57,763 bases of DNA from an uncultured Saprospiraceae bacterium (lineage in GTDB: Bacteria > Bacteroidota > Bacteroidia > Chitinophagales > Saprospiraceae), in NCBI GenBank assembly GCA_938008185.1, contig CALLLR010000171.1, forward strand, positions 1-57,763, written 5' to 3'. Of this stretch, positions 38,598-44,503 are shown piece by piece; position 1 is the stretch's first letter, and every line of letters begins with the position of its first letter. Position numbers and translations under genes: made by a program. The notes under the pieces were generated by a model. The model was given only the letters and a program-made list of their open reading frames with translations. It did no database searches and was not told the DNA's origin.

Positions 38598-38771
38598 GGG
38601 ACCGTTTAATAATCTGTTTTTTTTGTTATATTAACCTTGCGTAAAAAGAGACTACCTGCCTGCCGGACAGGCAGGATAAACCAATTGACTGATTAACAAT
38701 TTATTATAAATAGCAATATTTAATTATGTAAATTAACCTATTTGCTTAGACACACTTGATTGAACACCCCC
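38598..38771 (-). mobile_element. 174-bp MITE, copy 1
   Basis: The reverse complement matches 44330-44503 over its full 174 bases with only scattered mismatches. The ends are inverted: GGGACCGTTTAAT at 38598 and ATTGAACACCCCC at 38771. The direct repeat TAAGGTT flanks it on both sides (38591-38597 and 38772-38778), which is a target-site duplication. A GC-rich near-palindrome lies at 38655-38675. It encodes no protein. The GTGTTCA...AAGTGTGTC end and 7-8 bp duplication suggest mobilisation by an IS256-like transposase (inference). Confidence 0.85.
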
Positions 38772-38792
38772 TAAGGTTACCGTGTATTTATT

Positions 38793-38800
38793 TATCTTTG
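38793..38800 (+). promoter_or_regulatory. possible -7 box before the solute-binding lipoprotein
   Basis: TATCTTTG matches TAnnTTTG. The start codon is only 9 bases beyond, and the place for a -33 box (38770-38773) is occupied by the MITE end. Confidence 0.3.
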
Positions 38801-38809
38801 CCAAAAAAA

Positions 38810-40429
38810 ATGCTATTCCGCTTTTACCTTATTTATATTTTACTCTCCTTTTTTGCAGCCTGTCAATCCAGCCAAAAAAACGACGATATCCGGACCGTTT
38901 TTCATTATAATCAACACAAAAATATCACCTCACTTGATCCCGCTTTTGCCCGCGCACAAAACAATATCTGGGCAATTGATCATCTCTACAATGGGTTGGT
39001 ACAACTGGATGATTCCCTTAATGTACGACCTGCAATTGCCAGCTCCTGGCGCGTTTCTCCGGATGGTTTAACCTATACTTTCGCCTTAAGAAAAGACGTT
39101 TTTTTTCATAAAGATCCCTGCTTTAAAAGCCAAGAAAGCAGAATAGTTACTGCCAATGATATAAAGTATAGCTTTAATCGTTTATTGGATAAAAAAGTAA
39201 ACGCTCCTGGTTCGTGGGTATTCAAAGGAAAAGTAAACGAAGAAAACCCTTTTACGGTGTTGGCACCCGATACTTTTCAAATTAAGCTGATTCGCCCGTT
39301 TCGTCCATTTTTAGGCATGTTGTCGATGCAATACTGTTCGGTGGTACCTCGCGAAGCCGTGGAATACTACGGTCGTGATTTTCGGAGTCATCCCGTTGGA
39401 ACCGGACCCTTTAAATTTAAACGCTGGATTGAAAACCAGTCTTTATTTTTAGCAAAAAATGACAATTATTTTGAGCCGGGTTTACCTAAAGTGGATGGGA
39501 TACGCATCAGTTTTATGGGCGACCGTAAGACCGCTTATTTAGAACTATCAAGGGGAAAAATAGATTTTTTCTCCGGTCTGGAATCTTCTTATATCAATGA
39601 ACTGATCACCAAAGACGGGGTGATTCATCCCGCCAAAGCAGATAAAATTCAATTTATAAAATCTCCTTACCTTAATTCCGAATATCTGGGGATCAACCTC
39701 TCTTTTGGAGAGGATGATAATTCTCTAAAGATGAAAAAAATCAGGCAAGCACTTAACTACGGAATTGATCGGGCCTTGATGTTGAAAACACTCCGTAATA
39801 ATGTCGGCGTACCGGCCAATTCAGGCTTTACACCGATTGGTCTTCCTTCCTTTTCTGCCGAAGCAGCGCCGGGTTATCGCTACAATCCGGATCAAGCCAG
39901 AGAACTGCTGCGAGCTGCCGGATTTCCAAATGGAGAAGGTTTGCCGGAAATTACCCTGCATACAACCGCCGATTACGAAGACCTGTGCACCTTTGCGGCC
40001 AAGCAATGGGAAAATCTGGGATTTAAAATAAAAATCGAACTTGCCGAATCGGCTACCCTGCGACAAATGATGACGAAAGGACAAGTTGCTTTCTTTCGGG
40101 CATCCTGGATTATGGACTATCCGGATGCAGAAAGTTTTTTTACTGTTTTTTATTCTAAAAATCCCGCGCCTCCCAATTATACCCGATTCAAAAACGTAGA
40201 ATTTGATCGGCTTTACGAGGCTGCACTAAAAGAAAATGACGATGCTATTCGTTACGGACTTTACCAAAAAATGGATCGTCTGCTAATTGAAGAAGCGCCC
40301 GTTGTCTTTTTATTTTATGACCAAACTGCCTTATTCGCCGCAAAGCCGGTTCATGGATTAAGCCGGAATGCGATTAATTTATTAAAAACCAAGAACATTT
40401 ATAAAGAAAAAGATTTGGCAAAGGATTAA
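38810..40429 (+). CDS. peptide/solute-binding lipoprotein of an ABC transporter (SBP_bac_5)
   Basis: The 539-residue protein begins with a lipoprotein signal, YLIYILLSFFAAC (lipid Cys). The family 5 extracellular binding fold follows: LDPAFARAQNN, IASSWRVSPDGLTYTFALRK, ANDIKYSFNRLLD, HPVGTGPFKF and MKKIRQALNYGIDR. Such proteins capture oligopeptides or similar ligands for an ABC importer, but no permease genes are nearby. I start at 38810, because the upstream codons of the longer frame lie in MITE sequence and the signal peptide begins here. The leader is A-rich (CCAAAAAAAATG). Confidence 0.88.
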   Translation: MLFRFYLIYILLSFFAACQSSQKNDDIRTVFHYNQHKNITSLDPAFARAQNNIWAIDHLYNGLVQLDDSLNVRPAIASSWRVSPDGLTYTFALRKDVFFHKDPCFKSQESRIVTANDIKYSFNRLLDKKVNAPGSWVFKGKVNEENPFTVLAPDTFQIKLIRPFRPFLGMLSMQYCSVVPREAVEYYGRDFRSHPVGTGPFKFKRWIENQSLFLAKNDNYFEPGLPKVDGIRISFMGDRKTAYLELSRGKIDFFSGLESSYINELITKDGVIHPAKADKIQFIKSPYLNSEYLGINLSFGEDDNSLKMKKIRQALNYGIDRALMLKTLRNNVGVPANSGFTPIGLPSFSAEAAPGYRYNPDQARELLRAAGFPNGEGLPEITLHTTADYEDLCTFAAKQWENLGFKIKIELAESATLRQMMTKGQVAFFRASWIMDYPDAESFFTVFYSKNPAPPNYTRFKNVEFDRLYEAALKENDDAIRYGLYQKMDRLLIEEAPVVFLFYDQTALFAAKPVHGLSRNAINLLKTKNIYKEKDLAKD

Positions 40430-40460
40430 GTAACTGATTGCCTTTCAATATTCACCATAC

Positions 40461-41862: not shown

Positions 41863-42012
41863 TCCATTGCAAATTATTAACTATTTTCTTAAAATCAACA
41901 AAATTTATCAAGAAAATATTTATCATAGTCTTTGCCTATATTGGCATAAGATAATACAATACCACAATACCCAAATTAAGCCTTATATTCGCATCAAAAA
42001 AACAATCACATT

Positions 42013-44250
42013 ATGGATAGTAAAAATCAAAATGGTACATCAGAAGGAAAATGTCCTTTCAATCATGGATCACTGACAGCTCGAAAAAGTGCGGGTGCAG
42101 GAATGGCAAACCGGGACTGGTGGCCCAATGCGCTCAAAGTAAATATTCTTCGTCAGAACTCTGAATTATCAGATCCAATGGGCGTTGATTTCAATTACGC
42201 TGAAGAATTTAGCAAACTGGACCTCAACGCGATCAAGAAAGATTTGACAGATTTAATGACGGATTCTCAGGATTGGTGGCCCGCCGATTACGGACACTAC
42301 GGACCGCTATTTATCAGAATGGCCTGGCACAGTGCGGGAACTTACCGAGTCGCCGATGGACGAGGAGGTGCCAGATCAGGAACCCAACGTTTTGCACCGC
42401 TTAACAGCTGGCCTGATAACGCAAACCTGGACAAAGCAAGATTATTGCTATGGCCAATCAAGCAGAAATATGGCCGAAGTATTTCCTGGGCGGATTTAAT
42501 GATCCTGACCGGAAACGTAGCACTCGAATCAATGGGATTTAAGACCTTTGGATTTGCGGGCGGTCGTCAGGATGTCTGGGAACCAGAACTGGATATCTAT
42601 TGGGGATCGGAGGCTGAATGGCTGGATGATAAACGCTATACAGGTGAGCGAGAACTGGAAATGCCTCTGGCAGCCGTGCAAATGGGATTAATTTACGTAA
42701 ATCCAGAAGGACCTAACGGAAATCCTGATCCCGTGGCATCGGCCCGTGATATCCGCGAAACGTTCGGTCGAATGGCTATGAACGACGAAGAAACGGTTGC
42801 TTTAATTGCCGGCGGTCATACTTTCGGAAAAGTACACGGTGCGGCCGACCCGGAAAAATATGTCAGTTACGAACCCGCCGGAGCAGCCATTGAAGAAATG
42901 AGTATGGGTTGGAAAAATAGTTACGGAACCGGAAACGCAGAATACACGATTTCCAGTGGTCTGGAAGGTGCCTGGACGACCAAGCCTGCACAGTGGACCA
43001 ACGACTATTTCGATCATCTGTTTAAGTACGACTGGGAACTCACCAAGAGCCCCGCTGGTGCTCACCAGTGGACGCCGAAGGGAGGAGCAGGAGCCGGTAC
43101 CGTTCCGGATGCGCACATCGAGGGGAAGACCCATGCACCCATGATGCTGACTTCTGATTTGGCTTTACGAATGGATCCCATCTACGAACCGATTTCTCGT
43201 CGTTTCCACGAAAATCCGGATCAATTTGCGGATGCTTTTGCCCGCGTGTGGTTTAAGTTAACCCACCGGGATATGGGATCAAGAGATCGCTATTTAGGAC
43301 CTGAAGTACCGGAGGAAGTATTGATCTGGCAAGATCCAGTGCCAGCGGTGGATCATAAATTGATTGACGAAAACGATATTAATCACCTGAAGGCGGAAAT
43401 CGCAAAAACGGGTATTTCAATTTCCCAATTGGTTGGGACGGCGTGGGCTTCGACGTCCACTTACCGAAATTCTGACGGTCGAGGTGGTGCCAACGGCGCC
43501 CGTATTCGACTCGCTCCACAAAAAGACTGGGAAATAAATAATCCTGGAAAGTTAGTGGTAATCCTGAATAAATTAGAAGCAGTTCAAAAAACATTTAACA
43601 ATGCCCAAACCGACGGTAAGAAAGTTTCCATTGCCGATGTAATTATCCTTGCCGGTTGTGTTGGCGTAGAGCAAGCAGCTAAAAAAGCGGGACACGATAT
43701 AACCGTTCCTTTTACGCCCGGTCGAACCGATGCAACCCAGGAAATGACGGACACGGAGTCTTTCGCTCCACTTGAGCCGGAAGCAGATGGATTCAGAAAT
43801 TATTCGAAAGGAGAGTTTACAGTTACCGCCGAATCTATGCTGATTGACCGGGCCCACTTGTTGACTTTGACGGCTCCCGAAATGACCGTTTTATTGGGTG
43901 GATTACGAGTAATTAACATTAATTACGATGATTCCAAAAATGGTGTTTTCACAGATCGTCCCGGTGCGTTAACCAACGATTATTTTGTAAACTTACTGGA
44001 TATGGATACCACCTGGAAAGCCATATCTCCGGCAGAGGATGTCTTTGAAGGACGCGATCGCAAGACGGATACCCTGAAGTGGATTGGGACCCGCGTGGAC
44101 CTTATTTTTGGTTCTAATACGGAATTACGTGCTCTGGCCGAAGTGTACGGATCAAAGGATATGGAAAAACAGTTTGTGGAAAGATTTGTAACTGTATGGG
44201 ATAAGATGATGAACCTGGATCGCTTTGATATTAAGAACGATGTAGAATAA
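42013..44250 (+). CDS. katG: catalase-peroxidase KatG
   Basis: The 745-residue haem enzyme breaks down hydrogen peroxide and also acts as a peroxidase. Distal residues are Arg102, Trp105 and His106 ([11 protein letters not shown]), and the proximal haem ligand is His270 ([12 protein letters not shown]). The Met-Tyr-Trp crosslink needed for catalase activity is complete: Trp105, Tyr229 and Met255. The C-terminal duplicated domain lacks the haem site, as usual. No signal peptide. A strong terminator follows, then a MITE. No clear OxyR/PerR site was recognised upstream. Confidence 0.98.
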
Positions 44251-44280
44251 ATAATTAATAACTTCATTACAGTAAAGGGG

Positions 44281-44308
44281 AGGCGGTTCGCAAGAACCGC
44301 CTTTTTTT
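44281..44308 (+). terminator. intrinsic terminator of katG
   Basis: AGGCGGTTC (44281-44289) pairs perfectly with GAACCGCCT (44294-44302) around GCAA, followed by a seven-T run. Confidence 0.95.
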
Positions 44309-44329
44309 ATAACCCGTAACGTCGAAGTA

Positions 44330-44503
44330 GGGGGTGTTCAATTAAGTGTGTCTAAGCAATTAGGTTAATTTACATAATTAAATATTTCTATTTATAATGA
44401 ATTGTTAATCAATCAGTTGGTTTATCCTGCCTGTCCGGCAGGCAGGTAGTCTCTTTTTACGCAATGTTAATATAACAAAAAACACAGATTATTGAACGGT
44501 CCC
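44330..44503 (+). mobile_element. 174-bp MITE, copy 2
   Basis: It begins GGGGGTGTTCAATTAAGTG and ends ATTGAACGGTCCC, so the termini are inverted repeats (GGG...GTTCAAT). The direct repeat TCGAAGTA lies on both sides (44322-44329 and 44504-44511), an 8-bp target duplication. A 21-base near-palindrome starting CCTGCCTGTCC lies at 44427-44447. No ORF of note. It is inserted 21 bases downstream of the katG terminator. Confidence 0.9.

What the first reader, a model, noticed from the sequence alone, without database searches (positions are those of the whole stretch)
38598..44503. A 174-bp MITE with inverted ends and target duplications, two full copies
38598-38771 is the reverse complement of 44330-44503 with few mismatches. 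Both are 174 bp, have GGG...GTTCAAT-type inverted termini and are flanked by different direct repeats (TAAGGTT; TCGAAGTA). Different duplications prove separate insertion events. The ends and 7-8 bp duplications fit mobilisation by an IS256-like transposase. I am not aware of a name for this element.
Basis: partly seen in the sequence, partly recalled or inferred. Interest (0 to 1): 0.6.

Follow-up and report, generated by a model that had tools for sequence, protein, structure and literature searches.

The report
Small mobile DNA parasite, many copies
Two near-identical 174-letter sequences here are copies of a gene-less jumping element whose ends match those of an ordinary bacterial transposon family (IS256) and which is scattered between genes in this genome; it is a new example of a well-known kind of element, with one odd feature, a 21-letter palindrome near its centre.

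Summary
Window 38598-38771 is the reverse complement of 44330-44503 (95%), each copy with its own 7-8 bp flanking duplication. It is a MITE: no gene inside; 52 matches in the own genome, about 41 places after joining pieces (my tally, a lower bound); 27 of 27 copies examined lie between called ORFs; 21 of 32 tested own-genome copies have an exact 7-9 bp duplication, against 2 of 992 mispaired controls. The IS256 assignment is supported: congener G035 carries a 1.35-kb element with an IS256-type (PF00872) transposase, closely similar ends and an 8-bp duplication. The window's genome (64% complete) showed only a decayed IS256 relic. Matches occur in 7 of 7 genomes of the genus, in one of them a single partial match.

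This palindrome is itself dispersed in 19 of 298 genomes of the family, with unrelated flanks where looked at, and occupies the same position in two MITE lineages. How it got there is unresolved. New member of a known kind; modest interest.

The parts
38598..38771 (-). MITE copy A, 174 bp, reverse orientation relative to copy B
38591..38597 (.). target duplication of copy A, left (TAAGGTT; CTAAGGTT if 8 bp)
   Evidence: (L005)
38772..38778 (.). target duplication of copy A, right (TAAGGTT)
   Evidence: (L005)
44330..44503 (+). MITE copy B, 174 bp, reference orientation
44322..44329 (.). target duplication of copy B, left (TCGAAGTA)
   Evidence: (L001)
44504..44511 (.). target duplication of copy B, right (TCGAAGTA)
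   Evidence: (L001)
44330..44354 (+). terminal inverted repeat, end 1: GGGGGTGTTCAATTAAGTGTGTCTA (21 of 25 bases as in one end of the G035 IS256-type element)
   Evidence: one search compared by eye
44479..44503 (-). terminal inverted repeat, end 2: GGGACCGTTCAATAATCTGTGTTTT (18 of its first 22 bases as in the other end of the G035 element)
   Evidence: one search compared by eye; alignment
44426..44446 (+). 21-bp GC palindrome CCTGCCTGTCCGGCAGGCAGG, absent from the 152/153-bp form of the MITE
38655..38675 (-). the same palindrome in copy A
55282..55391 (+). third MITE copy, truncated (query positions 63-172), with the palindrome at 55316-55336

Best explanation
[quoted passage not shown] The element codes for nothing; its two ends are IS256-type terminal inverted repeats. 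An IS256-family transposase supplied in trans binds the ends, copies the element out (as a circle, in the scheme described for IS256-family elements) and pastes it into a new site, duplicating about 8 bp of target. Shown here: the repeats, the multi-copy dispersal, the duplications, closely similar ends on a transposase-bearing element in a congener, the intergenic placement of the copies examined. Inferred: that this transposase actually moves this MITE, and the copy-out/paste-in route. The palindrome near the centre is extra to the 152/153-bp form of the element and has no shown part in its movement.
For: 52 matches in the own genome. Exact 7-9 bp duplications in 21 of 32 own copies vs 2 of 992 mispaired controls, and in 7 of 18 congener copies vs 0 of 306. 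In the 4 congeners that have both genes flanking copy A on one contig (G298, G253, G207, G137) no MITE lies between them: 3 have a short gap, G137 about 560 bp of other sequence. Element in congener G035 with PF00872 transposase, ends GGGAATGTTCAAATAACTGTGTCTA and GAGAGTGTTCAATAAACTGTGTCTC, duplication CTCTATTG. Among elements of the family whose transposase resembles the G035 one, nine others showed a pair of this type of end with an exact 7-9 bp duplication (no shuffled control was run for that scan). Membranihabitans marinus: a PF00872 fragment lies beside the end GAGACTGTTCAATTAAGTGTGTCTA, whose 19-base core is identical to that of copy B. Background: 8-bp duplications and copy-out/paste-in transposition for ISCth4 of the IS256 family (PMC7780238, passages read).
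Against: No intact IS256 transposase in the window's own genome (one relic in 4 pieces, three of them with an in-frame stop), though the assembly is 64% complete. The G035 transposase is itself split over two frames. The full-length PF00872 gene of Membranihabitans (L188) has no such ends in the 4.1 kb held. 11 of 32 own copies and 11 of 18 congener copies lack an exact 7-9 bp duplication. Similarity between MITE and IS beyond the ends was not tested for G035; against the own relic BLASTN shows only chance-level pieces.
Confidence: 0.93

Rival explanations
1. A conserved structured RNA or regulatory element (for example a terminator) rather than a mobile element.
For: Copy B folds better than all 200 shuffles (z -4.0); the GC hairpin is followed by TAG and then TCTCTTTTT.
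Against: No Rfam family at gathering score in the window; the fold follows from inverted ends plus the palindrome; copies sit at unrelated sites with target duplications; 4 of 4 congeners with both flanking genes on one contig lack it there; no orientation preference between same-strand neighbours, 8 of 14 (my tally).
Confidence: 0.03
2. A MITE of another transposase family that also gives 7-8 bp duplications, such as ISL3.
For: Five of the 21 own-genome duplications are 7 bp rather than 8; no intact IS256 in the genome.
Against: ISL3 transposase domain PF01610 gave 0 matches in the own genome; the same type of ends bounds PF00872 or PF00872-like elements in a congener and family members. No other transposase family was searched for in the own genome.
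Confidence: 0.03
3. A segmental duplication, or the inverted ends of one composite transposon spanning 38598-44503.
For: The two window copies are inverted and bracket about 5.5 kb with three large ORFs.
Against: The two copies have different duplications, each directly at its own ends; many single copies lie on other contigs; in G298 the flanking genes of copy A and katG lie on one contig in the same order, with no MITE at the place of copy A.
Confidence: 0.01

Closest known systems
IS256 family (Pfam PF00872 Transposase_mut), prokaryotic Mutator-like elements
   Same: Type of end, 8-bp target duplications; the congener's element with closely similar ends carries a PF00872 transposase.
   Different: The MITE has no transposase; its interior was not shown to derive from an IS.
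Bacterial MITEs such as the IS982-derived MITE of Cardinium (PMC9769881; part 1 of 3 of the text read)
   Same: Gene-less IS-type element in a genome of the Bacteroidota, with a related transposase-bearing element.
   Different: IS256-type ends instead of IS982; here an intact parent was found neither in this genome nor, with certainty, in a congener.
REP/REPIN and small dispersed repeats (PMC3116915; passages read)
   Same: Only the 21-bp palindrome resembles these, in size, palindromy and scatter.
   Different: In that paper REPs occur mostly as doublets near RAYT genes; here the palindrome is single at the sites shown, and no RAYT search was made. The MITE as a whole is not of this kind.

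Membership tests
MITE | short, non-coding | tested here: met
   174 bp; no ORF of 60 aa or more lies within either full copy; one TTG-start ORF of the downstream gene reaches 16 bases into copy A
MITE | terminal inverted repeats | tested here: met
MITE | many dispersed copies | tested here: met
   52 matches in the own genome (40 of 122 candidates scored); 7 further places; matches in 7 of 7 genus genomes, G137 only one partial
MITE | target-site duplications of near-constant length | tested here: met
   21 of 32 own copies and 7 of 18 congener copies with exact 7-9 bp; controls 2 of 992 and 0 of 306
MITE | shares ends with an autonomous transposon | tested here: inconclusive
   the G035 C16 element has closely similar ends, but its transposase is split over two frames, so its autonomy is doubtful
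IS256 family (as the mobiliser) | PF00872 transposase between this type of ends | tested here: met
   in a congener, not in this genome
IS256 family (as the mobiliser) | 8-9 bp target duplication (8 bp for ISCth4; 8-9 bp for the family recalled) | tested here: met
   lengths 7 (5 copies), 8 (11), 9 (5); the 7-bp cases depart from the rule unless a terminal base is counted in
IS256 family (as the mobiliser) | its transposase mobilises this MITE | not testable with these tools
   needs a transposition assay
ISL3 family | PF01610 transposase in the genome | tested here: not met
   0 matches (64% complete genome)
REPIN / small dispersed repeat (21-bp palindrome only) | dispersed at unrelated sites | tested here: met
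   19 of 298 genomes, 13 of 112 genera; unrelated flanks at the sites printed
REPIN / small dispersed repeat (21-bp palindrome only) | associated RAYT (Y1) transposase | not tested

The most novel reading that the evidence does not exclude
The 21-bp palindrome CCTGCCTGTCCGGCAGGCAGG is itself a very small mobile repeat, dispersed through Saprospiraceae, which inserts precisely (21 bp, no duplication or at most one T) and has entered the same position of this MITE at least twice, riding along when the MITE then multiplied: a mobile element inside a mobile element, with the MITE copies acting as ready-made empty and filled sites.
Probability: 0.25. Interest if true: 0.55.

Novelty: new member of a known kind. 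Interest (0 to 1): 0.3.

Why it matters
As a MITE it adds an IS256-type family, not found named here, in uncultured Saprospiraceae, with a candidate partner element in a sister species; it may explain several contig breaks in this draft genome and marks past IS256 activity. The central palindrome is the part worth a second look: filled and empty versions of one site in the same genome allow the gain and loss of a 21-bp repeat to be studied, which bears on how tiny palindromic repeats spread without a known transposase.

Tried and rejected
Rfam scan of the window at gathering scores: nothing. ISL3 transposase in the own genome: nothing. An intact IS256 in the own genome: only the C111 relic, with ends GGGCTTGTCCAAAATTTTGTGTTT / GGGAGTGTGCACTATTTTGTGTTT, a related but different type of end. 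The PF00872 gene of G137 C183 was first taken for a partner because a MITE-like end lies 118 bp away; that end points away from the gene and belongs to something else at the contig start. The full-length PF00872 gene of Membranihabitans (L188) does not have these ends in the stretch held. The 73%-identical transposase of G265 (L108) lies near a contig end and showed no pair of ends. Pattern scan of genome contigs for the end: 51 stretches; all but one are in records titled Saprospiraceae, Saprospirales, Lewinella or Membranihabitans (the last two placed in that group from memory); the exception (Succinivibrio, L147) lies inside a reading frame and looks like chance; one search looked at 11 of the 51.

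Nucleotide-perfect empty site: not obtained, because the intergenic DNA of the congeners is too diverged; gene-order evidence only. For copy B no empty-site statement is made: in the congeners its two sides mostly hit different contigs. Idea that the palindrome seeks the tips of larger inverted repeats: 2 of 21 loci at p<0.05, no trend. Idea that palindrome-bearing copies are one clade: rejected with all 42 rows (p 3e-8) and with L014, L015, L021 removed (4e-7), but not with L020 removed (0.29) nor with L020 and L021 removed (0.25); so the case for a second occurrence rests on L020. The root is unknown, so gain and loss cannot be told apart, and conversion of the middle segment between copies is not excluded.

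Rows dropped. From the duplication count: own copies L009, L017, L018, L019, L026, L036, L037, L043 and other fragments (contig edge, truncated or rearranged), and L084, L085, L094 of the congeners. From the tree: L017, L026, L036, L037, L043 and two spurious pairings (L046b551, L220b276); of 18 congener copies only 7 were used; also L018, L019 (contig edges) and L051. L036, left out, carries a degenerate palindrome at the same position. From the gene-context count: 27 copies were given, the later-found and fragmentary ones were not.

Literature: searches (MITEs with IS256, Bacteroidetes, Saprospiraceae; palindrome, small dispersed repeats). One search (17 bases of the palindrome) found 0 papers; two searches found one paper each (only the first was read, in part); searches matched 549, 189 and 78 papers of which 15, 15 and 10 were listed, so a description could lie among the unlisted ones. 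The library holds open-licence PMC papers only; ISfinder could not be searched.
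Full report
What is there. Window 38598-38771 and 44330-44503 are inverted copies of one 174-bp sequence, 95% alike, each with its own flanking duplication: TAAGGTT (7 bp, or CTAAGGTT) and TCGAAGTA (8 bp). A third copy, truncated at one end, lies at 55282-55391. Copy B lies downstream of a katG-like gene (42013-44250) and of a terminator-like hairpin seen by eye at about 44278-44306; copy A lies between a 181-aa ORF and a peptide-transport-type lipoprotein gene, whose ATG at 38810 is matched by an ATG in the congeners aligned. Gene names here come from my reading of the translations, not from a family search.

How many copies. The own genome (G000, 3.84 Mb, 281 contigs, 64% complete) gives 52 matches with 40 of 122 candidates scored, about 41 places after joining neighbouring pieces (my tally); one search shows 7 more. 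For duplications, 32 own-genome copies with two recognisable ends and both flanks were tested: 21 have an exact 7-9 bp repeat at the element's ends (five of 7, eleven of 8, five of 9), one has 6 bp and 10 have none; flanks paired wrongly give 2 of 992. Of 18 congener copies 7 do, control 0 of 306. All 27 copies whose neighbourhood was analysed lie between called ORFs; of the 23 with a neighbour called on both sides, 9 are between convergent genes, 14 between genes in tandem and 0 between divergent genes (a simple ATG-based ORF caller). This would fit insertion at many places followed by loss of harmful insertions (inference).

Kinship. Matches occur in 7 of 7 genomes of the genus; G137 has a single partial one (72% over 93 bases) and G298 and G207 mostly partial ones. 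Among 298 genomes of the family, with only two candidates scored per genome, 28 have some match; long ones occur only in the genus, the others being short AT-rich or palindrome matches. A genome-contig scan for the end places it in uncultured Saprospiraceae MAGs, a Saprospirales MAG, Membranihabitans marinus and Lewinella sp. W8. In four congeners (G298, G253, G207, G137) the two genes around copy A lie on one contig without a MITE between them; in G137 about 560 bp of other sequence lies there.

The mobiliser. The own genome has one decayed PF00872 gene in four pieces. In the genus 4 of 7 genomes have PF00872 matches. The element in G035 C16 (transposase 36838-38030, element about 1.35 kb) has ends GGGAATGTTCAAATAACTGTGTCTA and GAGAGTGTTCAATAAACTGTGTCTC and the 8-bp duplication CTCTATTG. 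The first end differs at 4 of 25 bases from end 1 of the window copy and at 2 of 25 from two MITE copies of G035 itself (L052, L081); the second differs at 4 of the first 22 bases from end 2 of the window copy (all by eye). The transposase reads in two slightly overlapping frames. A protein search with its first 254 residues found relatives in 92 of 398 family genomes. In one search, 38 transposase loci (L099-L136, some overlapping) were scanned for paired ends: besides the G035 element, nine (L104, L111, L114, L119, L120, L121, L131, L132, L136) showed a pair roughly of the type GRGANTGTTCANTNAACTGTGTC with an exact 7-9 bp duplication, L131 and L132 with more departures from that pattern; the rest gave no pair or no duplication, and no shuffled control was run. 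In Membranihabitans a PF00872 fragment starts about 110 bp inside an end whose 19-base core is identical to that of copy B, while the full-length PF00872 gene of that genome lacks such ends in the stretch held. Passages of PMC7780238 give 8-bp duplications and copy-out/paste-in for the IS256-family ISCth4. The ends therefore place the MITE with IS256; that the transposase moves it is inferred.

The palindrome. The alignment of 52 copies (34 own, 18 from congeners) shows that the 174-bp form is the 152/153-bp form plus exactly CCTGCCTGTCCGGCAGGCAGG between TTTAT and TAGTCTC. In the own genome 13 exact copies of the palindrome exist, 11 in MITEs and 2 elsewhere. Within one mismatch it occurs in 19 of 298 family genomes, 13 of 112 genera; the reversed control is 0 in every row shown. 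Its flanks at the other sites printed are mostly unrelated. On a tree of 42 rows built without its columns, its presence needs 5 changes (at least 2 forced by well supported branches), and one clade is rejected (p 3e-8). That rejection rests on copy L020, whose left and right halves both resemble most a copy without the palindrome (L232) and whose palindrome is the paired variant CCTGTCTGTCCGGCAGACAGG; without L020 one clade is not rejected (p 0.29). So the palindrome sits at one exact position in two MITE lineages. A single old insertion with precise losses, two insertions, or conversion of the middle segment could each explain this; the root is unknown and the alignment is short.

Verdict. 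A MITE family of IS256 type, spread in one genus, not found named in the listings seen of the searches made. Ordinary in kind; the palindrome is the one feature I cannot fully explain.

Noticed in passing
window 38537-38599; L213-L219: Half copy of a second dispersed repeat (CTATTCACATTTTAGGGAAGCCAATAGC...; ends like CTTAGCTCGACTTTAGC in other copies) found in G035 and G286; MITE copy A is inserted at its outer end.
   Followed up: partly
44426-44446, 38655-38675, 55316-55336; L223, L224, L237-L246: 21-bp GC palindrome, within one mismatch in 19 of 298 family genomes, independently of the MITE.
   Followed up: partly
L050 1145-2389 (G000 C111): Decayed IS256-type element with in-frame stops and a near-duplication GATAATTC / GATAATTT at its ends; the only PF00872 match in the own genome.
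   Followed up: yes
L002, L007, L008, L009, L018, L019, L020: Several contigs begin or end at or within about 300 bases of a MITE copy, so the repeat may break the assembly.
   Followed up: no
L051 (G286 C39): At the palindrome's position this congener copy has a different GC stretch, CCTCCCGGGG: perhaps a remnant of the palindrome or another insertion.
   Followed up: no
Membranihabitans L140, L142-L144, L151, L152, L156, L162, L173, L176, L186, L187; Lewinella sp. W8 L138, L145, L146, L153, L164, L167, L182: Contigs of these two genomes end repeatedly within about 400 bases of the same end sequence, as collapsed IS copies would.
   Followed up: partly
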